A stretch of 64,000 nt of DNA, from the NCBI RefSeq assembly GCF_001413925.1, contig NZ_LBMJ01000001.1, positions 1,776,001-1,840,000 on the forward strand, given 5' to 3'. A program made the position numbers and the translations under genes. This document shows positions 2,336 to 61,195 of the stretch, in pieces. Source of the DNA: Nonlabens sp. YIK11 (GTDB lineage Bacteria > Bacteroidota > Bacteroidia > Flavobacteriales > Flavobacteriaceae). The notes beneath the pieces are model-generated. The model ran no database searches, was not told the origin of the DNA, and saw nothing but the letters and a program-made list of their open reading frames with translations. Every line of letters begins with the position of its first letter. The stretch's first letter is position 1.

Positions 2336-4393
2336 TCACGCTACCAATCCAGCTCTTTTAAGCAAAGCGTCTATTTTAGGTTCGCTTCCGCGAAAGCGGG
2401 TATACAACAACATTGGGTTCTCTGTTCCACCTTTTGATAAAACGTTCTCCTTAAAGCTAGAGGCAATTTCCCTATTGAAAATACCTCTTTCCTTGAACAG
2501 TTCAAAAGCATCTGCATCGAGAACTTCTGCCCATTTATAGGAGTAATATCCAGCGCTGTAACCACCTTGAAAAATGTGGGCAAAAGCGGTACTCATACAG
2601 CTACTTTCCACATCTGGATATAAATCTGTCTGGTCAAAAGTTTTCATTTCATGAAGTTTTACATCATCAATCTCACGTGGATCGATACCATGCCAACTCA
2701 TGTCCAGCATCCCAAAGGATAGCTGTCGCAGCGTTTGCAACCCTTGATGGAAACTAGCTGCATTCTTTATCTTTTCAATGTACTCTGCTGGAATTACTTC
2801 GTCCGTTTCATAATGACGGGCAAAAAGTTCTAGCGCTTCTTTCTCATAACACCAGTTCTCAAGAATCTGACTGGGCAGTTCCACAAAATCCCAAAATACT
2901 GATGTGCCCGATAGGCTGCGGTAAGTGGTATTTGCAAGCATGCCGTGCAGCGCATGTCCAAATTCATGAAAAAGTGTGGTCACCTCATTAAAGGTGAGTA
3001 ACGATGGTTTAGTAGCAGTAGGCTTAGTGAAATTACAAACGATGGAAATGTGTGGACGGCTGTTCACACCATTTTCAATGTATTGATCTTTGAATGAGGT
3101 CATCCAGGCGCCATTTCTTTTTCCCTTACGCGGGAAAAAATCGGCATAGAAGATAGAATTCAATGAGCCGTCTTCATTTTTGACCTCATAAGTCATCACG
3201 TCCTTGTGATAGGTGTCTATGTTATCAGTTTTGTGAAATGTCAATCCATACAGACGATTTGCCACTTCAAAGGCGCCGTCGATGACATTTTCCAATTTAA
3301 AATAGGGTTTGAGAAGTTCGTCATCAAGATTGAAGTGTGATTTCTTGAGTTTTTCAGAGAAATAGGCGGCATCCCATTTTTGCAACTCTTTAATGGGTTC
3401 CATTTGGTTATCACGCAGGTATTCAACCGCAAAATCAGTAAGTTCATCAAATTCCTTTCTTGCTGCGGGCTTGGCTTTTTTGAGTAATTCCTCAGAGAAT
3501 TTGCGCACCTTTTTAGGCGTCATCGCCATGCGTTCTTCCAATACAAAGTGCGCGTGAGTTTTGTAGCCTAGCAAATTAGCTCTTTCAAATCGCAAGTTGG
3601 CTATTTCCAGCACATTCTCTTGATTGCTATGCTTACCTTGATAAGCTCTAGCTCCAAAAGCTTTGGACATCGTTTCACGCAGTTCACGGTTATCTGCATA
3701 AGTCATGAAAGGAATGTAGCTGGGATAATCCAGCGTGAATACATAACCTTCCTTGTCACGGCTTTTTGCCTCTTCTGCAGCGGCTTCTAGCGCTGTTTCT
3801 GGTAGACCGGCAAGGTCGTCCTTGTTGGTGATGTGTAATTCAAATTCTTGGGTTGCTGCGAGTACGTTCTCTCCAAAACCTAGAGAAAGTTGCGCCAGTT
3901 TTGCATCGATTTCACGCAATCGCTCTTTTTTGTTTTCGGCAAGATTGGCACCATTACGGGAAAATCGTTTGTATTGTTTTTCCAGCAAAGTCAATTGTTC
4001 TGGGTCCAGTGCTAGTTCATCGCGTTGATCATAAACGGCTTTTACCCTGGCAAACAATTCTTTATTTAAAGTCACATCGTTACCAAATTTTGAAAGCTGC
4101 GGACTCACCTCACGGGCAATTCGCTGTATTTCGTCATTGGTCTCTGCGCTGTTGAGGTTGAAAAATATAGAACTGATGCGGCTCAGTTGATCGCCGCTTC
4201 GGTCCAGTGCCTCGATGGTATTTGCAAAGGTGGCCGGTTGACTGTTACTGGTGATGGTGTCAATTTCTGACTGTGCTAATGAGATCGCTTTCGCGAAAGC
4301 GGACTCAAAATGAGCCTCTTCAATCACGGCAAACGGTGCCGTTTGAAAAGGCGTTTCAAACGTCTGTAATAGGGGATTGTTTTCTTTACTCAT
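2336..4393 (-). CDS. dcp: M3 family zinc metallopeptidase (peptidyl-dipeptidase Dcp / oligopeptidase A type)
   Basis: 685 residues, the usual length for the M3A family. The zinc motif HEFGH lies near residue 475 in FHEFGHALHGML, with the third zinc ligand Glu expected in the following ENWCYE segment. Downstream FQGGYSAGYYSYKWAEVLDADAF matches the family's substrate-binding Gly/Tyr-rich loop. There is no signal peptide, so it probably acts in the cytoplasm on oligopeptides left by larger proteases. Two copies of the dispersed palindrome fall in the reading frame: one near residue 32 (read as AFAKA) and a one-mismatch copy near the C terminus (read as RFRGS). Neither touches the catalytic core. 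Dcp and PrlC cannot be separated by eye with certainty. Confidence 0.93.
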   Translation of the reverse strand: MSKENNPLLQTFETPFQTAPFAVIEEAHFESAFAKAISLAQSEIDTITSNSQPATFANTIEALDRSGDQLSRISSIFFNLNSAETNDEIQRIAREVSPQLSKFGNDVTLNKELFARVKAVYDQRDELALDPEQLTLLEKQYKRFSRNGANLAENKKERLREIDAKLAQLSLGFGENVLAATQEFELHITNKDDLAGLPETALEAAAEEAKSRDKEGYVFTLDYPSYIPFMTYADNRELRETMSKAFGARAYQGKHSNQENVLEIANLRFERANLLGYKTHAHFVLEERMAMTPKKVRKFSEELLKKAKPAARKEFDELTDFAVEYLRDNQMEPIKELQKWDAAYFSEKLKKSHFNLDDELLKPYFKLENVIDGAFEVANRLYGLTFHKTDNIDTYHKDVMTYEVKNEDGSLNSIFYADFFPRKGKRNGAWMTSFKDQYIENGVNSRPHISIVCNFTKPTATKPSLLTFNEVTTLFHEFGHALHGMLANTTYRSLSGTSVFWDFVELPSQILENWCYEKEALELFARHYETDEVIPAEYIEKIKNAASFHQGLQTLRQLSFGMLDMSWHGIDPREIDDVKLHEMKTFDQTDLYPDVESSCMSTAFAHIFQGGYSAGYYSYKWAEVLDADAFELFKERGIFNREIASSFKENVLSKGGTENPMLLYTRFRGSEPKIDALLKRAGLVA
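2383..2398. repeat. Dispersed 16-bp palindrome, variant copy (1 mismatch)
   Basis: CGCTTCCGCGAAAGCG, inside the 3' end of the M3 peptidase gene. Confidence 0.85.
4286..4301. repeat. Dispersed 16-bp palindrome, exact copy
   Basis: CGCTTTCGCGAAAGCG inside the 5' part of the M3 peptidase gene, read as AFAKA on the minus strand. Confidence 0.95.
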
Positions 4394-4467
4394 GGTCGTA
4401 AAAGTACGAGCCAGAGGTCTAAGGTTTTATAGGGATTTGTTAAATACTTTCACATTTTTTGGCAATT

Positions 4468-4707
4468 TTAAAGGATAAAATGACCATATGCGAAAAATAC
4501 TACACCTGACACCGCATGAATCCAACCTAAATAATTGATATCCTTTGTGGTAAACTGGCGATTGATAATGATGGACATGATGATATGAACGGCACCAACC
4601 GTCAAGAAATGCCACTTTACAAAGTGATGTAATTGTAATTCATAGATCAACCAGATCACCGTCAAACCTATCACGATAATCGAGCTGTATAGAAAAGGTT
4701 TACTCAT
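4468..4707 (-). CDS. Small integral membrane protein of unknown function
   Basis: 79 residues with three hydrophobic segments: about 5-22, 33-50 and 60-78. No motif that I recognise. Its ATG overlaps the stop codon of purE upstream (8-nt overlap), so it is very likely translated as the second gene of a purE operon. The link to purine synthesis is positional only. A homologous-family search would be needed to name it. Confidence 0.7.
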   Translation of the reverse strand: MSKPFLYSSIIVIGLTVIWLIYELQLHHFVKWHFLTVGAVHIIMSIIINRQFTTKDINYLGWIHAVSGVVFFAYGHFIL

Positions 4708-9120: not shown

Positions 9121-9136
9121 CGCTTTCGCGAAAGCG
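9121..9136. repeat. Dispersed 16-bp palindrome, exact copy
   Basis: Intergenic, 35 nt upstream of the htpG start, so it would lie in or near the htpG 5' leader or promoter. Confidence 0.95.
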
Positions 9137-9171: not shown

Positions 9172-11061
9172 ATGTCACAACAAGGAAAGATTAATGTAGC
9201 GGTGGAGAATATTTTCCCGCTCATCAAAAAGTTCTTATACAGCGATCACGAGATTTTCCTGCGCGAGCTGGTTTCTAACGCCACGGATGCGACCCTTAAA
9301 CTGAAGCACCTGGCCATGATAGGTGAGGCTAACGTAGAGTTGGGCGACCAACAGATTGAGGTGAAAATCAACAAAGAAGATGGAACGCTACATATCATAG
9401 ACCAAGGTCTAGGTATGACTGAAGATGAGGTGCAGAAGTATATCAACGACATTGCATTTTCTGGTGCCGAGGAGTTTCTTGAAAAATATAAGGACAGCGC
9501 CAAGGATAGTGGGATCATAGGACACTTTGGTCTAGGATTCTATTCTGCTTTTATGGTGGCTGATAAAGTAGAAATCATCACGAAGTCCTATAAAGACGAG
9601 CCAGCGGTACACTGGAGCTGTGATGGATCTCCTAATTACACGATTGAACCGGCAGAGAAAGAACACTTTGGTACAGAGATCATCTTGCACATAAGCGATG
9701 ACGAGAAGGAGTTTCTTGAAGAGAGTAAGATACGCGAGCTGTTGACCAAGTACAACAAGTTCATGCCAGTGCCTATCAAGTTTGGTACAAAAACCGAAAC
9801 CCTTGAAAAGCCAGAAGGAGCCAAAAAGGATGATCCAGCACCTACCAAGGAAGTGGACAACATCATCAACAATCCAAATCCAGCCTGGACAAAACAACCT
9901 ACGGAACTAGAAAATAAAGACTACAAAGACTTCTACCGCGAGTTGTACCCTATGCAGTTTGAAGAGCCGTTATTCCACATTCACTTGAATGTTGACTATC
10001 CATTCAACCTGACGGGAATTCTATATTTCCCTAAAATGACCGCAGATCTTAACGTGCAAAAGGATCGCATCCAGTTATATCAAAACCAGGTTTTTGTCAC
10101 AGATAACGTGGAAGGCATCGTCCCAGAATTCCTGACCATGTTGCGCGGTGTGATCGATAGCCCAGACATTCCACTGAATGTTTCTCGATCTTACTTACAA
10201 GCAGACGGCGCTGTGAAAAAGATTTCCAGCTACATTACCCGCAAAGTAGCAGACAAGTTGAAGTCTTTATTTAATGAAGACCGTGCTGCATTTGAGGAGA
10301 AATGGAACGACATCAAGATCGTTATTGAATACGGTATGTTGAGCGAGGACAAATTCTTTGAAAAGTCTGATGCTTTTGCTTTGTACCCAATAGTTGATGG
10401 TTCCTTCTACACTTGGGATGAGTTGATGGAGAAAATCAAGCCAGCCCAGACGGATAAGGATGGTAAGACGGTTGTTCTATATGCTTCTAATAAAGAGGCA
10501 CAGCATAGTTATCTTGCTTCCGCGAAAGCGAAAGGATATGAAGTCTTATTGCTAGATTCACCTATTGTATCACACTTGATGCAAAAGCTGGAGCAATCTA
10601 AAGAGAACGTCACTTTTGCCCGAGTTGATGCAGATAGTGTTGATAATCTGATCAAGAAAGAAGAAGAGCAAATTTCTAAGCTTTCTGACGAGGAGAAAGA
10701 AAACTTGAAGAAGAGCATTACAGAAACCATTGCAGACACCAGCTATAACGTGCAGGTAGAAGCTATGAGTAGTGATAGTGCGCCATTCATGATTACGCAA
10801 CCAGAATTCATGCGCCGTATGAAAGAGATGCAGGCTACTGGTGGTGGCGGTATGATGGGCTTTGGTAACATGCCAGACATGTATAACCTTGTCGTAAATG
10901 CAAATCACGAATTGATTCAAGAGATCATGGCAACAAAAACTGCCAAGAAAAAAGAGCGATTGATCAAACAATCTGTTGATCTTGCAAAGCTTTCCCAAGG
11001 ATTATTGAAAGGTGAAGCCTTGACAGAATTTGTGAACAGAAGCTATGAGTTGATTAAATAA
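9172..11061 (+). CDS. htpG: Molecular chaperone HtpG (bacterial Hsp90)
   Basis: 629 residues, the family length. The GHKL ATP-binding domain is N-terminal: EIFLRELVSNATDATLKL holds the catalytic Glu and Asn, and DQGLGMT and GHFGLGFYSAFMVAD are the nucleotide lid and glycine motifs. The middle domain contains the NVSRSYLQ segment with the conserved catalytic-loop Arg. The C-terminal dimerisation domain ends NRSYELIK. It acts in the cytosol on client proteins during heat and other stress. A two-mismatch copy of the palindrome is read in frame as ASAKA near residue 450, in a non-conserved stretch. It is monocistronic, with a clear terminator. Confidence 0.98.
   Translation: MSQQGKINVAVENIFPLIKKFLYSDHEIFLRELVSNATDATLKLKHLAMIGEANVELGDQQIEVKINKEDGTLHIIDQGLGMTEDEVQKYINDIAFSGAEEFLEKYKDSAKDSGIIGHFGLGFYSAFMVADKVEIITKSYKDEPAVHWSCDGSPNYTIEPAEKEHFGTEIILHISDDEKEFLEESKIRELLTKYNKFMPVPIKFGTKTETLEKPEGAKKDDPAPTKEVDNIINNPNPAWTKQPTELENKDYKDFYRELYPMQFEEPLFHIHLNVDYPFNLTGILYFPKMTADLNVQKDRIQLYQNQVFVTDNVEGIVPEFLTMLRGVIDSPDIPLNVSRSYLQADGAVKKISSYITRKVADKLKSLFNEDRAAFEEKWNDIKIVIEYGMLSEDKFFEKSDAFALYPIVDGSFYTWDELMEKIKPAQTDKDGKTVVLYASNKEAQHSYLASAKAKGYEVLLLDSPIVSHLMQKLEQSKENVTFARVDADSVDNLIKKEEEQISKLSDEEKENLKKSITETIADTSYNVQVEAMSSDSAPFMITQPEFMRRMKEMQATGGGGMMGFGNMPDMYNLVVNANHELIQEIMATKTAKKKERLIKQSVDLAKLSQGLLKGEALTEFVNRSYELIK
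10515..10530. repeat. Dispersed palindrome, variant copy (2 mismatches)
   Basis: TGCTTCCGCGAAAGCG in the middle of htpG. Confidence 0.7.
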
Positions 11062-12741: not shown

Positions 12742-12764
12742 TACATCCATTTTCTTCAAATTTC

Positions 12765-12792
12765 AAACCTCCCAAGAATGGGAGATTTTTTA
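12765..12792 (+). terminator. Intrinsic terminator after curlin gene 1
   Basis: CTCCC-AAGAAT-GGGAG followed by a T-rich run, 25-50 nt after the stop. This makes curlin gene 1 a separate transcript. The remaining gap to 13459 contains the second palindromic element, a possible TATATTTG promoter and the leader; I see no supported gene in it. Confidence 0.8.
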
Positions 12793-13170
12793 TTTCGTGT
12801 TCTCTATGAATGTCGATTTATCTCAATTTCTTTGATAAGATTGAGTCTGTTAATTGAATTCTACAAAGCAAATTCGTTGACTAAGTACATAGTAGTCCTT
12901 TGCACATTGAATACTTTGTAGTCTTGATTTTTTTAGAGGTTCACCATTTGTGTTGTATTCACTCTTTGAAGCAAATAAATGAGCTTGAGTAATTTGTTAT
13001 GACAAATCCTTGAATTTTGACTTCTTATTTTATTAAAATGGTATCTATAAACTTCTTTTATTGATTCATCTTTGAAATATCTCCAAAAAGCGTAGTTCAG
13101 CGCTTATCATTTGTTTATTCTAGCGACTAGTACTCAAGCAATTCAACTGATTTTTTTGCATTAACATTTA

Positions 13171-13192
13171 ATTAACAACCGTTAACATTTCG
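13171..13192. promoter_or_regulatory. Palindromic element upstream of the second curlin gene
   Basis: ATTAACAACCGTTAACATTTCG, related to the element at 11225 and at the same distance from the start codon. The inner dyad is TTAAC-AACC-GTTAA. Confidence 0.5.
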
Positions 13193-13280
13193 CTTTGCGC
13201 CTGCCGTTCCAGACGAATTTGTAGTACGATTTTTACATATGAAGTTCGTCGAATTATTGCTTCTTACTTTGATTCCTACA

Positions 13281-14656: not shown

Positions 14657-14690
14657 TAAACGGTCTATACCATTTATTAAATTAAATAGA

Positions 14691-16478: not shown

Positions 16479-17990
16479 ATGATGATCACATCCCAAAATA
16501 TATTCCGGTTCGCTGGACTGTTGACCTTGCTTGTCATTATTACTTCGTGTGGTTCCTATTTTAGTCAACCACTGGACACACAAAATGCAAGAATAGGAGA
16601 AACCACAGACGCGACCTACAAGCTAAGAAACTTACCGCAACCTATGGCTCCGGCCGTAGTAGGCGTATATAAGTTTGAAGATCAAACTGGTCAATTCAAA
16701 CAGACAGAAAATGGTTCAACCTTTAGTAATGCGGTTACCCAAGGTGGTACCACCATCCTTGTCAAAGCACTGCAGGATTCTAAATGGTTTACACCTATTG
16801 AAAGAGAAAACCTTGACAACCTTATCAACGAACGTCAAATCATAAACTCTACCAGGAAGGATTATGCGCAACAGACCAACACGCAACAACAGCCTTTGCC
16901 ATCACTATTGTATGCTGGTGTACTTATAGAAGGCGGCATCGTTTCTTATGATACTAATGTCTTGACTGGTGGCGCTGGTGCTCGATATTTTGGAGCCGGT
17001 GGTTCTACTAAATACCGTCAGGATAGAGTGACGATATACCTTAGGGCCGTTTCTACAAAAAATGGAGAGATTTTAAAAACAGTCTATGTTTCAAAATCGA
17101 TCTATTCCCAGGCGATCGACGCGAGTCTCTTTAGGTATGTCAATTTTAAAAGACTCCTTGAAGCCGAGACTGGATTCACGAGAAATGAACCAGGACAACT
17201 CGCTGTAAAAGAAGCTATTGAAAAAGCGGTTGAAGCCCTTATAGTAGAAGGAATGGAGGCCGGTTTGTGGTATCCTAAAGGTGGTGATGCAGTAGCTACC
17301 AAAATGCTTCAGGACTATAATAATGAGAAAGAGGTCGCAGAACGTACCGATGTTTACCAGCGTGAATTTTTGGATCGACGCAGTAAGTGGCGATTTGATG
17401 TAGGTGCAGGTGGAACTTTTGCAAACAACGATCTACCTAACGCAGATTATGAATATTCCATCACAGGTGGTTTAAAATACAGTTTCACACCTTTTTTGGG
17501 AATCTATGGAACAGCTAACAAGTACCGTATCAACAACTTTGGAGTGTTGAATAGAGAATTTGCCAGTACAGATTTCAACCTTGAGTTTACCGCATTGCCC
17601 TATGAAAAATTTAGCCCGACTATTTATGCGGGACCTGGGCTCAATTACGCCAGCAATTTTAACGTGATCGATTTCAAGCTACAAGCTGGAGTAAGTCTTG
17701 AATATCTCATTTCTCCCAGCATGGGATTGAAAGTATATGGTGAGTACAATGCCACTTTTTCAGATGAATTGGATTATGCAATTTCTGGAAAAAGGGATGA
17801 CCATTTTTACAAATTTGGCGCTGGCATCAACATTTACATAGGAAATAATCAAGCCAAGGAGAATTCACCTCGATATCTTAAACGTCGCGAGACCAAAGAA
17901 CTCAAAAGACAACAAAGACTTGAACAAGAAACACCAGTATCTGTCGTGGATACGCTTTCGCGAAAGCGAACTAATCCCATAAATCAATAG
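16479..17990 (+). CDS. csgG: Curli secretion channel CsgG with C-terminal beta-barrel extension
   Basis: 503 residues against about 277 in E. coli. The lipoprotein signal ends LLVIITSCGSY, with Cys about residue 24. The CsgG domain (about 45-275) has GGIVSYDTNVLTGGAGARYFGAGG, TIYLRAVSTKNGEIL and FKRLLEAETGFTRNEPGQLA, all clear counterparts of E. coli CsgG. From about 305 to 468 there is a second domain of alternating amphipathic strands (FDVGAGGTFANND through YKFGAGINIYIG) typical of small outer-membrane beta-barrels of the OmpA/OMP_b-brl kind. The tail is charged and carries the dispersed palindrome, read as LSRKR. CsgG forms a nonamer, so each ring could bear nine extra barrels. Confidence 0.92.
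   Translation: MMITSQNIFRFAGLLTLLVIITSCGSYFSQPLDTQNARIGETTDATYKLRNLPQPMAPAVVGVYKFEDQTGQFKQTENGSTFSNAVTQGGTTILVKALQDSKWFTPIERENLDNLINERQIINSTRKDYAQQTNTQQQPLPSLLYAGVLIEGGIVSYDTNVLTGGAGARYFGAGGSTKYRQDRVTIYLRAVSTKNGEILKTVYVSKSIYSQAIDASLFRYVNFKRLLEAETGFTRNEPGQLAVKEAIEKAVEALIVEGMEAGLWYPKGGDAVATKMLQDYNNEKEVAERTDVYQREFLDRRSKWRFDVGAGGTFANNDLPNADYEYSITGGLKYSFTPFLGIYGTANKYRINNFGVLNREFASTDFNLEFTALPYEKFSPTIYAGPGLNYASNFNVIDFKLQAGVSLEYLISPSMGLKVYGEYNATFSDELDYAISGKRDDHFYKFGAGINIYIGNNQAKENSPRYLKRRETKELKRQQRLEQETPVSVVDTLSRKRTNPINQ
17953..17968. repeat. Dispersed 16-bp palindrome, exact copy
   Basis: Last 15 codons of csgG, read as LSRKR on the plus strand, in a poorly conserved charged tail. Confidence 0.95.
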
Positions 17991-21797: not shown

Positions 21798-22850
21798 CTA
21801 TTGTGTGATTTCTATTTCAAACATTTTAGGCCAGCGTTTTCCAGTCACAAATAAACGGTTGGTAGACTTGTCATAAGCGATACCATTAAGGACATTATCT
21901 TCTTTGTCCCAATTAGGGATTTGATCTTTTAAGGTAGTCATGTTTAAAACACCTTCCAGCGCACCCGTCTTAGGGTCTAGAATAAAGACAGCGTTCTCCT
22001 GATAGATGTTTGCATATATTTTACCGTCAACATATTCCAGTTCATTGATTTTTTCAAACGTCTTTTTATTGGAAACTATCTGGATATACTCCAATTCTTC
22101 ATAGGTATCAGGATCCAGTTTCCAGATCTTGTCGCTACCATCGCTCTTATAAAGAAACTCACCGTCGTTGCACAAGCCCCAACCTTCCTTACTTTGATTA
22201 TATTTAAATGTATCAGTTTCATTAAGATTAATGTCATAAACGTACCCAAAACGACTTCTCCAGGTCAATTGATACACCTTGTCATCTAGAATGGTAAGGC
22301 CTTCTGCAAATATGTCCTTGCCCAATTCATTTTTCTCCAGTACCTCGCCAGTTTCCACTTGTGTGATGCGCACGTCAGATTCACCATATTGCCCAGTACT
22401 TTCGTATAATTTCCCATTGTGGAACTCAAGTCCTTGCGTGTAAGCCGACTCATCATGAGGGTAAGTGTTTATAATATTGTAATTATAAATCTTTGGTGCT
22501 GCAGGATTCATTCGGTTTATGCTCGTAGCAGCGGTGGCCACCATATTATTGCGGTAGACCACAGCCTTGTAGGTAAGTGTACCTAAAGGTTGGTTAATTA
22601 GCTTTCGCGAAAGCGTATTACCCTCAACATCCTCTAATTTACGGGCATTTTGGTACCACACGATGCTGTCTGCACCCATGGAAGCGTCGTCCACCAAAGA
22701 AATTTGCACGGTATCATCATCACTCCAGTTATTTTTTTCATTGGTTATTTCCAGAGAATAATTGGACTTGAATCGGTCTAACTCGGTTTTACAACTTGAT
22801 AATGAGAGTGCTACAAAGGCAACTAAAACGCAATATTTCCAGTTCATCAT
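21798..22850 (-). CDS. Glutaminyl-peptide cyclotransferase (glutamine cyclotransferase family), lipoprotein
   Basis: 350 residues from the ATG at 22848-22850. The signal MMNWKYCVLVAFVALSLSSC is a lipobox signal, so I rejected an upstream start that adds 19 residues. The C-terminal 240 residues form the five-bladed propeller of plant-type QC: YPHDESAYTQGLEFHNGKLYES, GLTILDDKVYQLTWR, EGWGLCNDGEFLYKSDGS and NELEYVDGKIYANI are all family hallmarks, including the catalytic Glu. It forms pyroglutamate at N-terminal Gln of exported proteins; many Bacteroidota secreted proteins begin with Q after signal cleavage. A near-exact copy of the palindrome is read as LSRKL near residue 80, outside the QC domain. 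Confidence 0.93.
   Translation of the reverse strand: MMNWKYCVLVAFVALSLSSCKTELDRFKSNYSLEITNEKNNWSDDDTVQISLVDDASMGADSIVWYQNARKLEDVEGNTLSRKLINQPLGTLTYKAVVYRNNMVATAATSINRMNPAAPKIYNYNIINTYPHDESAYTQGLEFHNGKLYESTGQYGESDVRITQVETGEVLEKNELGKDIFAEGLTILDDKVYQLTWRSRFGYVYDINLNETDTFKYNQSKEGWGLCNDGEFLYKSDGSDKIWKLDPDTYEELEYIQIVSNKKTFEKINELEYVDGKIYANIYQENAVFILDPKTGALEGVLNMTTLKDQIPNWDKEDNVLNGIAYDKSTNRLFVTGKRWPKMFEIEITQ
22600..22615. repeat. Dispersed palindrome, variant copy (1 mismatch)
   Basis: AGCTTTCGCGAAAGCG inside the glutaminyl cyclase gene, in its Ig-like N-terminal region. Confidence 0.85.
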
Positions 22851-25480: not shown

Positions 25481-25496
25481 CGCTTTCGCGAAAGCG
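25481..25496. repeat. Dispersed 16-bp palindrome, exact copy
   Basis: In the gap between the convergent LuxR-type and hydroxylase genes, right after the terminator. Confidence 0.95.
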
Positions 25497-28171: not shown

Positions 28172-28187
28172 CGCTTTCGCGAAAGCG
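28172..28187. repeat. Dispersed 16-bp palindrome, exact copy
   Basis: Intergenic, 21 nt after the GH13 stop. Confidence 0.95.
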
Positions 28188-35479: not shown

Positions 35480-37042
35480 CTAACTACTGCAACTCAATTG
35501 CGATGATCCTGGTTTTTTTCTTGCCCAATCGGGTCGTTTCACATACCAGTGATCCATTGATGGCTGGTCGTCATAAGGGTTTTTGAGCATCTCATTAACT
35601 TTATTCAACATTTTATAATTCCCAGCTTCGGCTTGATCGATGACCATTTGCGCGATGTAGTTGCGCAGCACATACTTAGGATTCGTTTGCTGCATTTGTT
35701 TTGTTCTCGCTTTCGCGAAAGCGGACTCTTTTTCAAGGCGTTTTACATATAAATTCAACCAGTCCATCCAACGGTTTTGGATAGGTGCAGGCATATCCTC
35801 AATGTCGTAATAGCTTTTGGAAATGGTTTGCCAGGCGCCGTCAGCGTTTGTAGTATGATCTACTGTGATGAGTTCTCTATAGAAAAGGGTCATGTCAGTC
35901 TCGTGTGCCACGAGCAGTTCCAATAATTCCTCAAAAAGGCTCTCATCCTGTGGCTCATAGGTTTGCAAACCAAGCTTTGCCTGCATCATTTGCCTACGTT
36001 GAATAGGATAAGACACTTTATAGGAATCCAGCACACGCTCCAGCGCTTTTGCATCCTCAATAAGCGGAAATAAGGCATTAGCCAACTGCCATAGATTCCA
36101 GAGACCGATTTCTGGCTGTGCGCCATATCGATAGCGTTTATGCTGATTATCTGTAGTGTTGGGCGTCCAGTTGGGATCATAATCATCCAGCCAGCCGTAT
36201 GGCCCATAATCAATTGTCAATCCCAGAATGGATAGATTGTCCGTATTCATGACGCCATGCACAAAACCAACGCGTTGCCAGTGCATGATGGTGGTCAATG
36301 TGGATGTAGCAACTTCCTGAAAAAATGTGATGTATTTATCGGGATCTTTAGCATCAATATGAGGGAAGTGATGACGGATCGTATAATCCACCAGCTGCTG
36401 CAGTTCCTTGATCTCACCATTTGCAGCAAAAATCTGAAAATTTCCAAAACGTATAAATGATGGAGCCACACGACAGACTACTGCACCTTTCTCATAGGCG
36501 GCATTGCCATCATAAAACATGTCTCTATATACCTGCTCGCCGGTAACGGCAAGAGAAAGGGATCTCGTGGTAGGAATACCCAGATAATGCATGGCCTCGC
36601 TACACAAATGCTCACGTATGCTGGATCTAAGGACGGCATAACCATCACCACGCCTGGAATAAGGTGTAGGTCCAGCGCCTTTGAGCTGCAGTTGCCAGAT
36701 CTTTTGGTCATTTTCTATCTCGCCTATGTTGATGGCTCTACCGTCACCCAATTGTCCAGCCCAATTCCCAAATTGATGACCACCATAATTCATGGCAAAG
36801 GACTTGTCATGGTAGTCGCCTTTACCAACCACCAAATTCTTAAATTCTTCGGTTTCCAGATCGCTTTTATTGTAACCTAATTCCTGAGACAATTCTTTGC
36901 TCACATGAATCAATTCAGGATTTTTGAATTGCTGGCAATCGACAAGGCTATAGTGCGATTGAGAAACTTTTCTAGGTTCTAAAACCCTAGACGGGTCTGC
37001 TGTGAGTTCGTTTGAAAAGGATGATGGCTGTAATGACTTCAT
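35480..37042 (-). CDS. selO: Protein adenylyltransferase SelO (YdiU family)
   Basis: 520 residues. KGAGPTPYSRRGDGYAVLRSSIREHLCSEAM is the SelO pseudokinase-fold nucleotide region, with GGHQFGNWAGQLGDGRAINIGE just before it and the NTDN-Asp segment (GVMNTDNLSI, YGWLDDYDPNWTPN) as the metal site. The C terminus ends SCSS, as in E. coli YdiU, where a C-terminal Cys forms a regulatory disulfide. SelO transfers AMP to Ser, Thr or Tyr of client proteins and is linked to oxidative stress. A perfect palindrome copy is read as AFAKA about 75 residues from the C terminus. Confidence 0.95.
   Translation of the reverse strand: MKSLQPSSFSNELTADPSRVLEPRKVSQSHYSLVDCQQFKNPELIHVSKELSQELGYNKSDLETEEFKNLVVGKGDYHDKSFAMNYGGHQFGNWAGQLGDGRAINIGEIENDQKIWQLQLKGAGPTPYSRRGDGYAVLRSSIREHLCSEAMHYLGIPTTRSLSLAVTGEQVYRDMFYDGNAAYEKGAVVCRVAPSFIRFGNFQIFAANGEIKELQQLVDYTIRHHFPHIDAKDPDKYITFFQEVATSTLTTIMHWQRVGFVHGVMNTDNLSILGLTIDYGPYGWLDDYDPNWTPNTTDNQHKRYRYGAQPEIGLWNLWQLANALFPLIEDAKALERVLDSYKVSYPIQRRQMMQAKLGLQTYEPQDESLFEELLELLVAHETDMTLFYRELITVDHTTNADGAWQTISKSYYDIEDMPAPIQNRWMDWLNLYVKRLEKESAFAKARTKQMQQTNPKYVLRNYIAQMVIDQAEAGNYKMLNKVNEMLKNPYDDQPSMDHWYVKRPDWARKKPGSSQLSCSS
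35708..35723. repeat. Dispersed 16-bp palindrome, exact copy
   Basis: Inside selO, in the ESAFAKART segment. Confidence 0.95.
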
Positions 37043-38724: not shown

Positions 38725-38740
38725 CGCTTTCGCGAAAGCG
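38725..38740. repeat. Dispersed 16-bp palindrome, exact copy
   Basis: In the 68-nt gap between the convergent yihY and nhaD genes. With the GTT/AAC flanks it could serve as a shared hairpin terminator. Confidence 0.95.
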
Positions 38741-41635: not shown

Positions 41636-44600
41636 CTACGTAGTTATTAAATTTTCTTCTTCCAATCTCAGCAAGGCTTGTCGATATTCTTCTGGCAATA
41701 CTTTAAGGAAATGTGGTAGTTCCTGCTTCCAGTTTTCAAGTAATCGTTGAGCTAGCGGACTGAATGTAGCATTGTAATGCTGTTCTATCAAGTCCCTTAA
41801 CTTATTGATGTCTTCAGCATCAGTTACTGGATCGATATTTAATCCTTCGGCATTCACTTGACGCTCAAAGGTTTTTTCTTTATCATATATGAAAGCAATA
41901 CCGCCACTCATTCCTGCTCCAAAGTTTCGACCAACAGGTCCCAGAACAACGGCAACACCACCAGTCATGTATTCACAACCATGATCACCAATTCCTTCCA
42001 CAACCGCTGTAGCACCCGAATTACGTACACAGAATCGCTCGCCGGCCTTACCATTGATGTAGGCTTCACCAGCTGTCGCGCCATATAAGGCCACATTTCC
42101 AATAATGACATTTTCTTCTGGCTTGATGGTAGCTTCCTCATGTACCTTCACAATCAGTTTTGCACCTGACAATCCTTTACCTATATAATCATTTGTGTTT
42201 CCAGTAACTGATAAGGTAAGGCCATGCGTCGCAAATGCTCCAAAACTTTGTCCTGCAGATCCTGAAAAATTGATTTTCAAGGTGTTTTCTGGTAATCCTT
42301 GAGAGCCGTAGATCTTAGAGATCTCGTTGCTAAGGATTGCTCCAACCGCACGGTCTTCATTCGTTATCTTAAAATCTAAAATGGTTTTCTCTTTTCTAAA
42401 CAATGCTGGGTGCGCTTTACTTATGATTTCTAAATCCAACGCATCCTCCATCTGGTGATCCTGCTTTTCTGTATTGTAAAGTTTAGTTCCAGCTGGAACA
42501 TCAATTTTGTGCAGAATAGGTGAGAGGTCTATACCACGGGTTTTATAAAAATCTATAGCTTTGTTTCGATCTAGCTTTCCTACCTGACCCACCATTTCAT
42601 CTACTGTTCTAAATCCTAGTTGAGCCATAATCTCACGCAATTCCTGTGCAATGAAATACATGTAGTTCACCACGTGCTCTGGTTTTCCTTTGAATTTTTT
42701 GCGTAATTCTGGATTCTGTGTGGCGATACCAACAGGACAAGTGTTCAAGTGACAAACGCGCATCATGATACAGCCCGAAGCTACCAGCGGTGCGGTAGCA
42801 AACCCAAACTCTTCGGCGCCCAGCAAACATGCGACGGCAACGTCACGTCCAGTTTTCATTTGACCATCACATTCTACAACGATGCGGTTGCGTAAATCAT
42901 TCATGGCTAGAGTCTGTTGAGCTTCAGCTAGTCCGAGTTCCCAAGGCAAACCACAGTGTTTGAGTGACGTAAGCGGCGATGCACCAGTACCACCATCAAA
43001 ACCAGAGATCAAAACCACATCGGCCTTAGCTTTTGCCACACCAGCTGCAACAGTTCCGACACCAACCTCGCTTACCAACTTCACATTAATACGAGCTTCA
43101 CGGTTAGCCGATTTCAAATCGTAAATCAATTGGGATAAGTCCTCAATCGAGTAAATATCGTGGTGTGGTGGTGGAGATATCAAACCAACGTAAGGTGTTG
43201 AATTCCTAGTTTTGGCAATTTGTGGATTTACTTTAGGTCCAGGCAACTGGCCACCTTCTCCAGGTTTTGCACCTTGCGCCATTTTGATTTGAATCTCTGA
43301 GGCATTGGTTAAGTAGTTAGAGGTTACTCCAAATCTACCAGAAGCCACTTGCTTGATCGCACTGTTTTTCCAGTCACCAGTGGCATCTTTATAGAAGCGT
43401 GATTCATCTTCACCGCCTTCACCGCTGTTGCTTTTACCACCTATACGGTTCATGGCTACGGCTAGATTTTCATGAGCCTCTGCACTAATAGATCCGTAGG
43501 ACATCGCGCCTGTTTTGAATCGCTTCACAATATTGGTCCAAGGCTCTACTTCTTCTAATGGTATGGGATCAAAATTTGTAAATTCAAAAAGACCACGTAT
43601 CGTCATCAATCGTCTGGATTGATCGTTGATAATTTCAGAATATTCCTTGTAGGTAGTTGCCTTGTTCGTACGAACGGCTTCCTGCAGTTTAGCCACGGAC
43701 AAAGGATTGAACATGTGGTGCTCGCCATTACGTCTCCAGCGATACTCACCGCCCATTTCTAGGTCTAGACTTCCATCGATTTCTTGACGCTCATAAGCTT
43801 GTTTATAGCGTTTGTTGATCTCCTTTTCCAGCTGGTGCAATCCTACACCTTGAATTCTCGTGGTGGTTTTAGGGAAATAGGCATTCACAACCTCAGTGTT
43901 AATACCTATACATTCAAACAATTGCGCACCACGATAAGAATTGAGAGTGGATATCCCAATCTTGTTCATCACCTTCAAGATTCCTTTACCAACGGCTTTA
44001 TTGTAATTTTCTATTGCTTCAAGAGGTGTGATGGAAGTATCGTTCAATTCCTCAAGCTGCTCTTCAATAATTTCATTGACCATATAAGGATTGACAGCGC
44101 TCGCACCATAACCAAACAATAATGCAAAATGGTGTACTTCTCGAGGTTCTGCAGATTCGATGATGATGCTAATCTTTGACCTAAGCCCCAATCGTTGTAA
44201 TCCACTGTTGATATGGGAACAAGCAAGTAGGGCAGGAATAGGTGCAAGTTCTTTGCTTGTATTACGGTCTGATAAAATGATAATGTTGTATCCTTTTTTC
44301 GCTTTCGCGGAAGCGGTCTGCAACATCTCTTCAAGGGCATCTTCCAATCCATTGTGGCCACGTTTGATGTCGTACAACATTGGGATCTCGGTGATCTTGA
44401 TATCTGGATTTTGGTAACTTTTTATTTTGTCCAGATCCTGCTTAGAAATTACGGGATTCTGAATCTTTAATTTTTTACAGTGTGCTTCACTAATTTCAAA
44501 GATGTTAGCGTCCTTCCCTAAGGTCAAACTTATGTCTGTAATGAGTTGCTCTCTTATACCATCCAACGGCGGATTTGTCACCTGTGCGAACAGCTGCTTG

Positions 44601-46376: not shown

Positions 46377-46392
46377 CGCTTTCGCGAAAGCG
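46377..46392. repeat. Dispersed 16-bp palindrome, exact copy
   Basis: Divergent gap between gltB and the TrkA-C gene, 90 nt before the latter. Confidence 0.95.
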
Positions 46393-50445: not shown

Positions 50446-50463
50446 ATAGGGTGTTTTTAAGTT

Positions 50464-50479
50464 CGCTTTCGCGAAAGCG
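50464..50479. repeat. Dispersed 16-bp palindrome, exact copy
   Basis: Intergenic, 18 nt after the amt terminator and 67 nt before the DUF2891 GTG start. Confidence 0.95.
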
Positions 50480-50546
50480 AAACAACTCTCAACCACCGTA
50501 TTTAAAAATCAATCTTTACATTTACGGGAATCCTTCAAACAAACTC

Positions 50547-52855: not shown

Positions 52856-53598
52856 AGATCATTGACCTCAATTGTGATCTGGGCGAAGGCATGAGCAATG
52901 ACGAGCTCATCATGCCGCACATTTCCTCCTGCAACATCGCTTGCGGCGGTCATGCTGGTGATGCCGATAGTATAAAATCAAGTTTGCAACTCGCGCAAAA
53001 ATTTAATGTCAGAGCTGGTGCACATCCATCTTTTGAGGATCGGGAAAATTTTGGTCGTTTAAAATTGGACTGGTCCAGAGCTCGCTTTCGCGAAAGCGTA
53101 ACTCGTCAACTTCAGCTTTTCACAACCACGGCGGCTGATTTACAAATGAAATGGCATCATATCAAGATGCATGGAGCGCTGTATCACGCCACAGCTCATG
53201 AGGAATCCTTTGCTCAATGGACGGTTGAATGGCTTCAAGAGTTTTATCCCCAAAAGCCTATTTATAGCTTGCCCAAATCGTTGTTGCATGACAAATGCAA
53301 AGAAGCTGGCCAACCTTTTATTGCCGAGGCATTTGTGGATCGTGCTTATTTGAAAAACGGTAGTTTGGTACCTAGATCACAGCAGGAAGCCGTTCACGAG
53401 ACCACAGAGCAAGCGTTGCATCAATTGATCTCTATGGCCCACCATAATCAAGTCACCACATTAGATGGTGCCCATCTGGAACTAATCGCAGATACGTATT
53501 GCATTCATGGTGATAATGTCAAACTTGTCATGCAATTGCCGGTCCTAGTTAAACAGCTGCATCAAAATCAAATTCAAGTTGCCAAATACAAAGCTTAA
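52852..53598 (+). CDS. pxpA: 5-oxoprolinase subunit PxpA (LamB/YcsF family)
   Basis: 248 residues. IDLNCDLGEGMSNDELIMPHISSCNIACGGHAGD is the YcsF/LamB signature with metal-binding His and Asp residues; RAGAHPSFEDRENFGR and KMHGALYHA follow. PxpA acts with PxpB and PxpC in ATP-dependent opening of 5-oxoproline (pyroglutamate) to glutamate. It overlaps both neighbours. An exact palindrome copy is read in frame as ARFRES at about residue 78-83. Confidence 0.93.
   Translation: MKIIDLNCDLGEGMSNDELIMPHISSCNIACGGHAGDADSIKSSLQLAQKFNVRAGAHPSFEDRENFGRLKLDWSRARFRESVTRQLQLFTTTAADLQMKWHHIKMHGALYHATAHEESFAQWTVEWLQEFYPQKPIYSLPKSLLHDKCKEAGQPFIAEAFVDRAYLKNGSLVPRSQQEAVHETTEQALHQLISMAHHNQVTTLDGAHLELIADTYCIHGDNVKLVMQLPVLVKQLHQNQIQVAKYKA
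53083..53098. repeat. Dispersed 16-bp palindrome, exact copy
   Basis: Inside pxpA, read as RFRES on the plus strand. Confidence 0.95.
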
Positions 53599-54289
53599 AT
53601 ATTATCAAGTAAGCGAAAACGCTATAGAGATAAGCTGGCCTACTAGCGATGGTTCGGTGTGGCTTGAACGCCATATGATGGCCTTAGAGTTAGAACGGTT
53701 CTATGGTGACCAAGTTGTTGTCAATGAAGGATATTTTAGCATCTTGGTGGTTTTCAAAAAACCAATTAGGCAATATCAACAACGACTTGAAGAACTTAAG
53801 TCAATGTCGAGCAATCTTGAAAACCTTCAGGGTTTTCAAGGCACTAAATGGCAAATTCCCGTTTTATATGATAGAGATAGCGAGGATCTTTTGTCCATAA
53901 GCAAACACACCTTGCTCACTTTTGAAAGCATTGTAAAAATGCATGAGCAAGCTATTTATACGGTAGAATTCATCGGTTTTTTGCCTGGATTTCCATACCT
54001 ATCTGGTTTGCCTGAAAAGTTGCAAATCCCGCGCAGGAAAACGCCCAATCCCAGCATCGCACCTGGCAGTGTTGCCATTGCAGCAGGACAATGCGGTGTC
54101 TACCCACAAACGTCACCTGGTGGTTGGTATGTATTGGGGAAAAGTCCGTTGGAGTTTTTTGATGTGCATAGAGAACAGCCCAATTTACTGAGTATAGGTG
54201 ATCAGGTTAAATTTTATGGAATCAACCAGCAGGAATATGATAGGATCAAGAACGGTCGGTTGAATGTAAAGGAGTTTCATAGTGAATAA
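53579..54289 (+). CDS. pxpB: 5-oxoprolinase subunit PxpB (KipI-like)
   Basis: 236 residues. The TTG at 53579 is the only plausible start; the first ATG would cut 40% of the N-terminal domain. GFLPGFPYLSGLP, PRRKTPNPSIAPGSVAIAAGQCGVYPQTSPGGWYVLGKSP is the KipI/PxpB core with the conserved Gln and Ser residues of the nucleotide-binding region. It partners with PxpC. It overlaps pxpA by 20 nt and pxpC by 8 nt. Confidence 0.92.
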   Translation: MPNTKLKYYQVSENAIEISWPTSDGSVWLERHMMALELERFYGDQVVVNEGYFSILVVFKKPIRQYQQRLEELKSMSSNLENLQGFQGTKWQIPVLYDRDSEDLLSISKHTLLTFESIVKMHEQAIYTVEFIGFLPGFPYLSGLPEKLQIPRRKTPNPSIAPGSVAIAAGQCGVYPQTSPGGWYVLGKSPLEFFDVHREQPNLLSIGDQVKFYGINQQEYDRIKNGRLNVKEFHSE

Positions 54290-55139
54290 GGCAACCATTG
54301 TACATTCAGGATTTTACTGCAGCATACAGGATTTGGGTAGGTTAGACTATAGAAATGTTGGCGTGCCACAATCTGGTGCAATGGACATGCAACTCGCCAA
54401 AAAGACAAATACCATTTTAGGCAACAGCGAAGAAGCTGCGGTTCTTGAAATGATCCTCATGGGCGCGACGATCTCTTTTGAAACCAAGACCTATGTCTCA
54501 ATATCTCAAAATGTTGACGGCGCCACGCTTAATGGTAAGACGATTTCTATAGATAGAGCTATTGCCGTGGAACGTGGCGATGTGCTCAAAATAGGTCACG
54601 TCACTCACGATAATTTTGCCTATTTAGGTATTTCTGGCGGTTGGAAAACCAAGCCGATCTTGGGCAGTAGGTCGATGTATGCTGGTATCACGGCCAGTGG
54701 TAAGCTCTCAAAGGGTGATATCGTGCCTTATGAAAATTGCTTTGAGGTTTTTGAGGATACTCGCTTTCGCGAAAGCGAACTAAATCAAAATACTATAATC
54801 GATGTTTTTGAAGGTCCAGAATTTCACTTATTGTCAAAAAATAACCAAAATCAGTTGCTTAGTCAAACTCTTGAGGTGTACAAATCCTGGAGTCGCATGG
54901 CTTTCAAGGTTCGAACCGGTACGCCCACTGAATTACCAGAACTTAGAACGGTGCCCGTAATGCCCGGAACAGTGCAGTTGACGCCAGATGGCGATCTTTT
55001 ATTCCTGATGCGAGATGCACAAACAACTGGTGGCTATCCACGTGTATTACAATTATCTAGTGATGCGATTGATAAATTTTCACAATTGCGTACTGGAGTT
55101 TCTTTTAACCTGAATTTAAGGCCTATTAACCATTCATAG
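54282..55139 (+). CDS. pxpC: 5-oxoprolinase subunit PxpC (KipA-like)
   Basis: 285 residues from a GTG at 54282. SGFYCSIQDLGRLDYRNVGVPQSGAMDM is the KipA/PxpC signature, followed by NTILGNSEEAAVLEMILMG and, near the C terminus, LMRDAQTTGGYPRVLQ. The final gene of the DUF2891-Nramp-pxpABC operon. Subunit of the ATP-dependent 5-oxoprolinase with PxpA and PxpB. An exact palindrome copy is read as TRFRES at about 160-165. Confidence 0.93.
   Translation: MNKATIVHSGFYCSIQDLGRLDYRNVGVPQSGAMDMQLAKKTNTILGNSEEAAVLEMILMGATISFETKTYVSISQNVDGATLNGKTISIDRAIAVERGDVLKIGHVTHDNFAYLGISGGWKTKPILGSRSMYAGITASGKLSKGDIVPYENCFEVFEDTRFRESELNQNTIIDVFEGPEFHLLSKNNQNQLLSQTLEVYKSWSRMAFKVRTGTPTELPELRTVPVMPGTVQLTPDGDLLFLMRDAQTTGGYPRVLQLSSDAIDKFSQLRTGVSFNLNLRPINHS
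54762..54777. repeat. Dispersed 16-bp palindrome, exact copy
   Basis: Inside pxpC, read as RFRES on the plus strand; the second copy within this operon in the same reading phase. Confidence 0.95.
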
Positions 55140-57804: not shown

Positions 57805-57820
57805 CGCTTTCGCGAAAGCG
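57805..57820. repeat. Dispersed 16-bp palindrome, exact copy
   Basis: Intergenic, 20 nt after that terminator and 106 nt before the tricorn protease start. Confidence 0.95.
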
Positions 57821-60900: not shown

Positions 60901-61166
60901 CCGCAGGTTATAGCGATTTGAAGATAGGAACCACGGTAGGTATGCCTACACCAGGGACTTGTAGTTTTGCAGGTTGGGAACGTTTGCCAGATGGTTCTCG
61001 TTGGGGCGTTGTTCCAGTGAGTGCAAAAGACATCAATGGCGACTGGATGGAAAACAATCAAACCAATCCTATGATACAGGTCAAAAACATGCCCTCTACC
61101 ATCATAAATGGGACAGATCAGCAATTGGATCGTGCCATTCAAGAACTTCTTAAGGAAGTAGAATAG
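57927..61166 (+). CDS. Tricorn-type S41 protease with beta-propellers and PDZ domain
   Basis: 1079 residues from the ATG at 57927 (MKSIVFLASFFLSIVATAQ is a clean signal peptide; an in-frame TTG 33 nt upstream is not needed). Two propellers span about 20-560 with repeated DGSQI-V-F-like and SPDGKKLAF blades. A charged KDKKDKDKKEKE stretch lies at about 566-592. A PDZ domain is at about 785-865 (GILITEVLTGGPLDKAKFDIQPGM). The S41 domain (about 895-1075) has VDTRFNGGGDLV and the nucleophile Ser about 986 in YSDGHCFAAG. It degrades peptides in the periplasm or after export. Family well known in Bacteroidota. Confidence 0.95.
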   Translation: MKSIVFLASFFLSIVATAQNDAGWLRHSAISPDGSQIVFTYKGDLYKVASTGRNAQQLTFHQAHDYMAVWSADGKRIAFASNRYGNFDVYVMDANGGGATRLTFHSSDEEPYTFSADGSQIYFGGLRQDTAQHRQFPTGSQPEVYSVPVAGGRVDQLFTIPAEELAVNSDGSTILYQDKKGGENDWRKHHTSSIARDLWAYDVASKSHKMLTTFNGEDRQPVYGANDQTVYYLSEQSGSFNVFKMNLNEPTKSIQLTNFETHPVRFLSYGNGVLSFGYDGKLYTMKEGEQPKKLVVNITTQAIDNSDKFISVNGGVQEMAVSPNGKEIAFIARGEVFVTSVEESFTKRLTNTPEAEQFVTWGPEGKSVVYSSERDGKWSIFKTEIERKEEPFFFAATLLKETPVIENDKDNYLARYSPDGKKLAFIEDRKTLKVKDIKTGEEVVLLTPEELFHMRDGDKYFRWSPDSKWLLVDWSLSLSNSDVLLMAADGSKRVNLNESGYYDSNPVWVNDGKQMLWFSNRDGLKSYATSGSTQSDVYSMFFTQDAWDEFNLSKEEYDLMKEIKKMSEKKSDEDNDDKKKDKKDKDKKEKEPVKDLTFDWDEMKDRVKKFTIHSSSLNDAVLSKDNSKLYYLTRFEDKLDLWETDLRTQETKMKMKLGASSGNLEWDADRENLFLLSSGKISKIDPEKEKKEGVDISGEMEYDAVAERQAMFDHVWLRTDKIFYHSNFHGIDWNLMKTEYEKHLPYIGNSTEFAEMLSEMLGELNVSHAGARGSSYSIDNEDETASLGIFMDYDHQDDGILITEVLTGGPLDKAKFDIQPGMIIQKIDGQDIQSNTDIAKYLNRKTGKFTLLEIKDPNKKDHLVITVKPISLGEERSLLYKRWVKTNEKEVEKKSNGKLGYVHIPGMSDGPYRDVYDKMMGKYHDRDGVIVDTRFNGGGDLVADLAAFFTGQPFITYATEQKVVGGEPTSRWTKPTLAMINEAQYSDGHCFAAGYSDLKIGTTVGMPTPGTCSFAGWERLPDGSRWGVVPVSAKDINGDWMENNQTNPMIQVKNMPSTIINGTDQQLDRAIQELLKEVE

Positions 61167-61179
61167 AGTAGGATGAGTT

Positions 61180-61195
61180 CGCTTTCGCGAAAGCG
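61180..61195. repeat. Dispersed 16-bp palindrome, exact copy
   Basis: Intergenic, 13 nt after the tricorn protease stop; could act as its 3' hairpin. Confidence 0.95.

What the first reader, a model, noticed from the sequence alone, without database searches (positions are those of the whole stretch)
2383..61195. A 16-bp palindrome, CGCTTTCGCGAAAGCG, recurs 18 times across genes and gaps
Exact copies: 4286, 9121, 17953, 25481, 28172, 31945, 35708, 38725, 46377, 50464, 53083, 54762, 57805, 61180. Variants: 2383, 10515, 22600, 44300. About one per 3.6 kb, where chance predicts essentially none. Nine are intergenic and nine lie inside genes, including htpG and gltB. Flanks often extend the dyad (GTT...AAC, GAGTT...AACTC). 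None of the reading frames (AFAKA, RFRES, LSRKR) has a stop, so insertion in a CDS is tolerated. This resembles HIP1, REP or DNA-uptake repeats in behaviour but is a distinct sequence. Possible roles: nucleoid or chromosome organisation, a DNA-uptake tag, a hairpin terminator or stabiliser, or a mobile miniature repeat.
Basis: partly seen in the sequence, partly recalled or inferred. Interest (0 to 1): 0.85.

Follow-up and report, generated by a model that had tools for sequence, protein, structure and literature searches.

The report
Evenly spaced genome-wide 16-base palindrome
A marine bacterium and its relatives carry the same 16-letter palindrome hundreds of times, spaced a few thousand letters apart and kept almost unchanged over evolution, most likely as a 'self' tag that some still unknown DNA-handling protein reads.

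Summary
All 18 sites are where stated (14 exact, 4 variants; shuffles give 0.1). The own genome (Nonlabens, Flavobacteriaceae) has 680 exact copies, reversed control 0; the 22 other genus genomes have 180-737. Two more genera and a MAG labelled Dokdonia have 408-857 copies of the 14-bp core; other sampled flavobacteria 0-19. In Nonlabens the 16-mer is the core of a ~78-bp two-fold-symmetric element: each strand's 5' flank is C-poor to about base -31, and the flanks do not base-pair. Sites arise by substitution in place, and the core is nearly frozen (1/384 changes against ~5% around it). Sites avoid each other (gaps under 1 kb: 1 seen, 21 expected). Some phages and metal-resistance islands carry it; two cultured Nonlabens phages and a 29-kb extra contig do not. 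Terminator, mobile-repeat and methyltransferase-driven readings fail or weaken. Best reading: a protein-read self tag that works like a DNA-uptake sequence, but palindromic and without a type IV pilus ATPase. A chromosome-organising site is the main rival. The text searches run found no description in print.

The parts
2383..2398 (.). variant copy (1 mismatch) inside M3 peptidase gene 2336-4393(-)
   Evidence: PF01432; orthologues
4286..4301 (.). exact copy inside the same M3 peptidase gene; at the same place in the 21 genus loci of at least 5 kb it is exact in 13, has one mismatch in 2 and is missing in 6
9121..9136 (.). exact copy, intergenic, 35 bp before the htpG ORF
10515..10530 (.). variant copy (2 mismatches) inside htpG 9172-11061(+)
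17953..17968 (.). exact copy near the 3' end of csgG-like gene 16479-17990(+)
22600..22615 (.). variant copy (1 mismatch) inside glutamine cyclotransferase gene 21798-22907(-)
25481..25496 (.). exact copy between convergent genes
28172..28187 (.). exact copy, intergenic, 21 bp after a stop codon
31945..31960 (.). exact copy, intergenic
35708..35723 (.). exact copy inside selO gene 35480-37042(-)
38725..38740 (.). exact copy between convergent genes; same spacer position in G004 and G020
44300..44315 (.). variant copy (1 mismatch) inside gltB 41636-46138(-)
46377..46392 (.). exact copy, intergenic between divergent genes
50464..50479 (.). exact copy at the called start of DUF2891 gene 50451-51665(+)
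53083..53098 (.). exact copy inside LamB/YcsF gene 52852-53598(+)
54762..54777 (.). exact copy inside carboxyltransferase-domain gene 54282-55139(+)
57805..57820 (.). exact copy, intergenic
61180..61195 (.). exact copy, intergenic, 13 bp after a stop codon
61149..61226 (.). example of the full element: 16-bp core plus 31 bp on each side (C-poor 5' flank on each strand); the extent is inferred from the profile over all sites, not from this copy alone
   Evidence: flank profile

Best explanation
In Nonlabens the 16-mer is the core of a ~78-bp, two-fold-symmetric DNA element read by a sequence-specific DNA-handling protein. In mode of action it most likely works like a DNA-uptake sequence: a self tag that favours uptake and/or recombination of DNA from kin, so that alleles carrying it spread by biased homologous exchange until there is about one tag per exchanged fragment (a few kb). 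Shown here: genome-wide iteration, clade restriction, origin by point substitution, extreme core conservation, symmetric degenerate flanks, mutual exclusion below about 1 kb, flank differences between lineages, presence in some phages and islands, absence from two cultured phages and one extra contig, presence of ComEC. Inferred: the reader protein, the link to uptake or recombination, and drive as the maintaining force. It is not filed as a member of the DUS/USS family.
For: 680 copies, control 0; 22/22 other genus members. Even spacing: first 99 gaps of the own chromosome, CV 0.48 against 0.99 for random placement, gaps under 1 kb 1 against 21; 60 gaps of G004, CV 0.67 against 0.98. In-place substitution: 60 of 90 coding comparisons exact, 22 with 1-2 mismatches, 8 with 4 or more, 0 gaps inside the site (pairs are not independent). 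Spacers: 36 of 47 exact, 8 with one mismatch. Core divergence 1/384 against 0.05-0.06. Flanks: C 6-8% within 15 bases and 11-13% from -16 to -30 against about 20% further out; 85% of single flanks above the 95th percentile of background, with a matrix built from the same sites. Same kind of flank bias in coding and intergenic copies, no left-right covariation. Lineage-specific flank letters: base outside the 16-mer mostly T in Nonlabens, A in g225 and the Dokdonia-labelled MAG (Fisher p 2e-8, 1e-14; half-sites, not independent). Islands and phage contigs carry it; two cultured Nonlabens phages and contig C2 have none. ComEC in 30/30 genomes. Published uptake sequences share point-mutation origin, degenerate flanks and even spacing (PMC1939737, passages; PMC7811141, passages) and dialects (PMC3630211, passages). 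A related bacterium, Riemerella columbina, is reported competent with preference for own DNA (PMC7965970, section 16).
Against: No type IV pilus/type II ATPase (PF00437 over cut-off) in the 8 motif-rich genomes tested, although 3 of 26 genomes in that call have it. ComEC is equally present in motif-poor genera, so it does not discriminate. No dip in between-species divergence around sites beyond the element itself. In g209 the C-poor flank is weak beyond about 8 bases (13 sites), and the 48 viral copies average 17% C in their 31-nt flanks, so the full element is not seen everywhere. Known uptake sequences have non-palindromic cores (consensus) and often lie close together. No competence report for Nonlabens or Dokdonia turned up (listing). 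No reader protein identified.
Confidence: 0.4

Rival explanations
1. Chromosome-organising array: a palindrome-binding nucleoid, segregation or occlusion protein (in the style of Noc, SlmA, MatP or ParB sites, recalled) binds every few kb to fold or segregate the chromosome.
For: Dyad-symmetric 16-bp core with symmetric flanks fits a dimeric binder. Regular spacing with exclusion under 1 kb. Conserved positions. Absent from an extra contig and two cultured phages. A mild regional difference: 49 copies in the 11 sampled stretches at 0-1.62 Mb, 24 in the 9 at 1.92-3.2 Mb, one of these a GC-rich repeat array (origin and terminus not located).
Against: Copies also in phage contigs and mobile islands. 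No binder found. Far more sites than the named systems (recalled).
Confidence: 0.27
2. Palindromic Chi-like site: stops or retunes a recombination nuclease from either side; the 3'-ended strand left behind is C-poor, G/T-rich and unstructured, good for RecA loading, with a hairpin at its end.
For: 5' flank of each strand is G/T-rich; its single-strand folding energy is -0.57 against -1.25 kcal/mol for random genomic 31-mers, an effect of composition since shuffling gives -0.60 (one flank of 120 of the 212 sites). The core folds as a hairpin. Density of one per 4.8 kb is like Chi in E. coli (recalled).
Against: 14-16 bp is much longer than known Chi sites of 5-8 nt (recalled). Two Nonlabens phages lack it, although they have annotated recombination genes of their own (ERF, YqaJ).
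Confidence: 0.12
3. HIP1-like palindrome created and kept by methylation-directed repair with a cognate DNA methyltransferase (Elhai model).
For: Iterated palindrome, point-mutation origin, clade-specific, mismatches biased to the outermost bases (12 of 18 single mismatches), as described for HIP1 (PMC4390886, abstract and part 1 of section 3.4).
Against: The own genome, with 680 copies, has no PF00145 and no PF01555 methyltransferase; each family is missing in 9 of 21 motif-rich genomes and both in 3 (G000, G007, G009). Other MTase families were not tested, and that paper itself notes HIP1-rich genomes without the MTase.
Confidence: 0.07
4. Transcription terminator or mRNA hairpin.
For: Hairpin-capable; 52 of 62 tandem or convergent intergenic copies lie within 101 bp of a stop codon.
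Against: Density in divergent spacers 0.65/kb, tandem 0.76, convergent 0.46; 71 of 147 copies are inside genes; flanks do not covary; the downstream flank is A/C-rich and not a T-run.
Confidence: 0.03
5. Mobile miniature repeat (REP/RAYT or MITE type).
For: High copy number.
Against: No gaps inside sites in 90 well-aligned orthologue comparisons; positions conserved between species. Two DNA-level alignments show a gap at the site (1 of 24, 1 of 11), not a 16-bp insertion pattern.
Confidence: 0.01

Closest known systems
DNA uptake sequences (DUS, Neisseriaceae; USS, Pasteurellaceae)
   Same: Hundreds to thousands of copies, point-mutation origin, strict core plus degenerate flanks, even spacing, flank dialects (passages)
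   Different: Palindromic core of 14-16 bp, symmetric ~78-bp element, exclusion zone under ~0.5-1 kb, hosts without a type IV pilus ATPase in the genomes tested, no uptake bias shown
HIP1 (GCGATCGC) of cyanobacteria and alternate HIPs
   Same: Highly iterated perfect palindrome, clade-specific, outer bases vary most
   Different: Twice as long, about one per 4.8 kb instead of about one per 1 kb, long C-poor flanks, no PF00145 or PF01555 methyltransferase in the own genome
Chi recombination sites (recalled)
   Same: Similar density to E. coli Chi and G/T-rich neighbourhood
   Different: Palindromic, long, double-strand symmetric
Noc, SlmA, MatP and ParB binding sites (recalled)
   Same: 12-16 bp palindromic sites read by chromosome proteins
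   Different: Many more copies, near-regular spacing, also in phage contigs and islands

Membership tests
DNA uptake sequence (DUS/USS) | Genome-wide over-representation of a short motif | tested here: met
   680 copies, control 0
DNA uptake sequence (DUS/USS) | Arises by point mutation and is held at orthologous sites | tested here: met
DNA uptake sequence (DUS/USS) | Experimentally preferred uptake of tagged DNA | not testable with these tools
   no assay possible; no report for these genera seen in the listing
DNA uptake sequence (DUS/USS) | Type IV pilus uptake machine in the host | tested here: not met
   no PF00437 hit over cut-off in 6 Nonlabens, G234, G250; only the ATPase family was searched
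DNA uptake sequence (DUS/USS) | Inner-membrane channel ComEC | tested here: met
   30 of 30 genomes, also motif-poor ones
HIP / alternate HIP | Highly iterated palindrome in genes and gaps | tested here: met
HIP / alternate HIP | Cognate DNA methyltransferase present when the palindrome is abundant | tested here: not met
   none of PF00145 or PF01555 in the own genome; other MTase families not tested
Chi site | Attenuates the host recombination nuclease | not testable with these tools
   needs enzyme or phage assay
Chi site | Short (5-8 nt), orientation-dependent (recalled) | tested here: not met
   16-bp perfect palindrome
REP/RAYT or MITE mobile repeat | Spreads by insertion | tested here: not met
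   0 gaps in 90 comparisons with flank identity of at least 0.5; 15 of 105 comparisons dropped, 6 of those gapped
Intrinsic terminator | Hairpin after genes followed by a T-run, scarce in divergent spacers | tested here: not met
Nucleoid-protein site | Bound by a dedicated chromosome protein | not testable with these tools
   no binder known

The most novel reading that the evidence does not exclude
Some flavobacteria (Nonlabens and at least two other genera) run a DNA self-recognition system built on a palindromic, symmetric tag and without a type IV pilus, with lineage dialects. It would be a third, independently evolved uptake/recombination tag beside those of Neisseriaceae and Pasteurellaceae, and the first that I know of in Bacteroidota.
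Probability: 0.33. Interest if true: 0.9.

Novelty: new variant of a known kind. Interest (0 to 1): 0.8.

Why it matters
A 16-bp sequence held at many orthologous places, nearly frozen while its surroundings diverge, means a strong and, as far as the searches show, undescribed DNA-level force in a marine group that includes rhodopsin model organisms. If it is an uptake tag, it shows that self-tagging of DNA evolved again in another phylum and without pili. If it organises the chromosome, it is an unusually dense and regular site array. Either way the force, the reader protein and the long-open question of why such iterated sequences exist become testable in cultured strains, and the tag can mark past gene flow (as in the metal-resistance islands).

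Tried and rejected
Rejected: chance; window-only repeat; insertion element; terminator; longer hairpin with paired arms (no covariation); mutational hot spot in the flanks (flank 6-31 diverges at the background rate); methyltransferase-driven HIP as tested. The ComEC tree groups g225 and g209 with a 9-copy genus; Nonlabens stands on its own long branch and the backbone is unresolved, so one or two origins cannot be told apart. DNA identity of the gltB loci does not put g225 nearer to the Dokdonia-labelled MAG than to Nonlabens (69.5% and 70.4%), so g225 is not named here; that MAG is 5.5 Mb and may be mixed.
Full report
WHAT IS THERE. All 18 sites stand at the stated coordinates: 14 exact, three with one mismatch, one with two; shuffled sequence gives 0.10. 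The genome holding the window (3.26 Mb, two contigs) has 680 exact copies and none of the reversed control pattern. In a 464-kb sample (20 stretches of 20 kb plus the window) there are 87 exact copies, 18 with one mismatch, 13 with two (four of them the same sequence) and 4 with three; one Markov simulation gives none below four mismatches. Twelve of the 18 single mismatches hit the outermost bases, so the tight core is the 14-mer GCTTTCGCGAAAGC.

WHO HAS IT. The 22 other genomes of the same genus have 180-737 exact copies; of the 36 same-family or same-order genomes outside the genus in that call, one has 4 and the rest none. The genus is Nonlabens: one member (G019) encodes a chloride-pump rhodopsin identical over 272 residues to PDB 5fjg (that this comes from N. 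marinus is recalled), and two fetched chromosomes have lengths that I recall for N. marinus S1-08 and N. dokdonensis DSW-6. In 299 family genomes the 14-mer is abundant in the three genus members drawn (578-752) and in two other genera, g209 (408) and g225 (857); all others have 0-19. A MAG labelled 'uncultured Dokdonia' has 740; the other 23 genomes of that call have 0-2. In 394 genomes drawn from the phylum, which included no other motif-rich one, only the own genome is abundant; genomes outside the family have 0-1, like the control pattern.

ANATOMY. In Nonlabens the core sits in a longer symmetric element. On each strand the bases 5' of the core are poor in C (6-8% within 15 bases, 11-13% from -16 to -30, about 20% beyond -50) and rich in T and, close in, G; the bias fades at about -31 (146 sites). 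Preferences include T-1, T-2, K-3, A-4, G-5, T at -9 and -12, G at -14 and -15, and T at several places from -24 to -31 (212 sites). The flanks carry about 5.3 bits per side; 85% of single flanks exceed the 95th percentile of random genomic flanks (matrix made from the same sites), and left and right flank scores correlate weakly (Spearman 0.30). Copies inside genes show the same kind of bias, somewhat weaker, and left and right flanks do not covary as base pairs, so this is a DNA-level feature and not the arms of a longer hairpin. As single strands the flanks are less structured than random genomic 31-mers (-0.57 against -1.25 kcal/mol, 120 of 212 sites), as their composition implies, and the core folds as a hairpin. 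The flank is similar in g225 (21 sites) and the Dokdonia-labelled MAG (37 sites), with A instead of T as the commonest base just outside the 16-mer; in g209 (13 sites) it is weak beyond about 8 bases.

PLACEMENT. In 844 kb from eight Nonlabens genomes, 71 of 147 copies lie in genes, 73 in spacers, 3 at stretch edges; L224, a GC-rich repeat array, was left out, as were copies within 50 bp of a stretch end. Density is 0.098/kb in genes and 0.76, 0.46 and 0.65/kb in tandem, convergent and divergent spacers; 52 of 62 tandem or convergent copies lie within 101 bp of a stop codon. In genes 41 of 71 use the frame that reads A-F-A-K-A (some regions are orthologous, so these are not independent). Sites avoid each other: the first 99 gaps on the own chromosome have mean 4.1 kb and CV 0.48 against 0.99 for random placement (0 of 5000 random sets as low), with one gap under 1 kb where 21 are expected; 60 gaps of G004 give CV 0.67 against 0.98. 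Within stretches, 1 of 108 gaps is under 1 kb where a gene/spacer-weighted null gives 24. Along the chromosome the 11 stretches at 0-1.62 Mb hold 49 exact copies and the 9 at 1.92-3.2 Mb hold 24, a mild difference not followed up.

EVOLUTION. In orthologous genes of eight Nonlabens genomes the 16 aligned bases are exact in 60 of 90 comparisons, differ by 1-2 in 22, by 4 in 2 and by 10-12 in 6, with no gap inside the site. 15 of 105 comparisons were dropped for flank identity below 0.5; six of those had gaps. In conserved spacers 36 of 47 are exact, 8 differ by one base and 3 by six or more. Against G004 (94.3% identity) the core has 1 change in 384 bases, the nearest five flank bases 0.029, flanks 6-31 0.05-0.06, like the background; against G020 (75.4%) 4 in 176 against about 0.26. 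One of 24 and one of 11 sites showed an alignment gap at the site. So sites are made by substitution in place and then held, while flanks drift within a composition. Divergence shows no dip around sites beyond the element.

MOBILE DNA. In seven motif-poor genomes whose copies cluster I fetched ten stretches. Nine of them belong to related islands (66-97% alike where aligned) with 2-4 copies per 20 kb; the sampled proteins are RND efflux, outer-membrane efflux and metal P-type ATPases. This points to islands that passed through a motif-rich host (inference). Many other genomes have single scattered copies. Thirty viral contigs carry it, seven of them of 51-67% GC with one copy each, probably by chance; flanks of the 48 viral copies average 17% C. 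Of ten proteins from four contigs, hits include portal, capsid, tape-measure and baseplate proteins and one integrase, so only one is shown to be of temperate type. The 29-kb contig C2 of the own genome has none (about six expected at the genome's density; whether it is a plasmid was not examined). The Nonlabens phages P12024S (whole) and P12024L (35.0 of 35.65 kb) have none; no integrase is annotated in them, and that they are lytic is recalled.

MACHINERY. ComEC is in 30 of 30 genomes tested, motif-rich or not. A type IV pilus/type II ATPase over the family cut-off is absent from the 8 motif-rich genomes tested and present in 3 of 26 in all. C5 methyltransferases (PF00145) and N6/N4 methyltransferases (PF01555) are each missing from 9 of 21 motif-rich genomes, and both from three, the own genome among them. 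This speaks against the methylation-driven model proposed for HIP1 (PMC4390886, read: abstract, outline and part 1 of section 3.4), though other methyltransferase families were not tested.

READING. A strict, dyad-symmetric core with loose symmetric flanks, present in genes and gaps alike and independent of transcription, is what a DNA-binding protein reads. Saturating, evenly spaced benefit, point-mutation origin and flank dialects are what uptake sequences show (PMC1939737, PMC7811141, PMC3630211, passages only). I therefore hold a self tag for DNA uptake or recombination to be most likely, at about 0.4. The missing pilus ATPase is a failed defining feature of the known DUS/USS systems, so I do not file it there. 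Riemerella columbina is reported to prefer its own DNA, and the commonest words of up to 10 bp that its authors list are A-rich (PMC7965970, sections 14 and 16). A chromosome-organising array is the main rival.

PRINT. The 16-mer occurs in 0 papers of the held library; TTTCGCGAAA in 10 and TCGCGAAAGCG in 2, all unrelated by title (listings only); topic searches (listings only) showed no description. The library holds open-access text, and supplements were not searched, so absence there is not proof.

Noticed in passing
L224 (own genome C1:3180001-3200000): A 20-kb stretch of 58% GC in a genome of about 40% GC, made of long near-identical repeats about 1161 bp apart; it holds no exact copy and five copies with 1-2 mismatches of the palindrome.
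   Followed up: partly
L225-L233 (other flavobacterial genera): Related metal-efflux islands shared across genera carry the palindrome, marking a likely motif-rich donor or past host.
   Followed up: partly
window 41636-46138: Full-length gltB in this genome; three other Nonlabens (G002, G014, G019) gave only partial ~30% matches, so gltB is patchy in the genus.
   Followed up: no
own genome C1:1452329, 1456800, 3018983: Three microbial rhodopsins in the window's genome.
   Followed up: no
window 11515-19468: Curli-type gene cluster (curlin repeats, CsgG).
   Followed up: no
G120, G330 (g95), G095 (g70), G188 (g163): Intermediate counts (9-19) of the 14-mer; whether these are islands, relics or an early stage was not examined.
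   Followed up: no
G354 (MAG labelled Dokdonia): Its flank preferences differ from g225 at positions -4 and -5 of the 14-mer although both favour A just outside the 16-mer, hinting at further dialects.
   Followed up: partly
own genome C1, sampled stretches: More copies per 20 kb in the first half of the contig (49 in 11 stretches) than in the second (24 in 9); origin and terminus not located.
   Followed up: no
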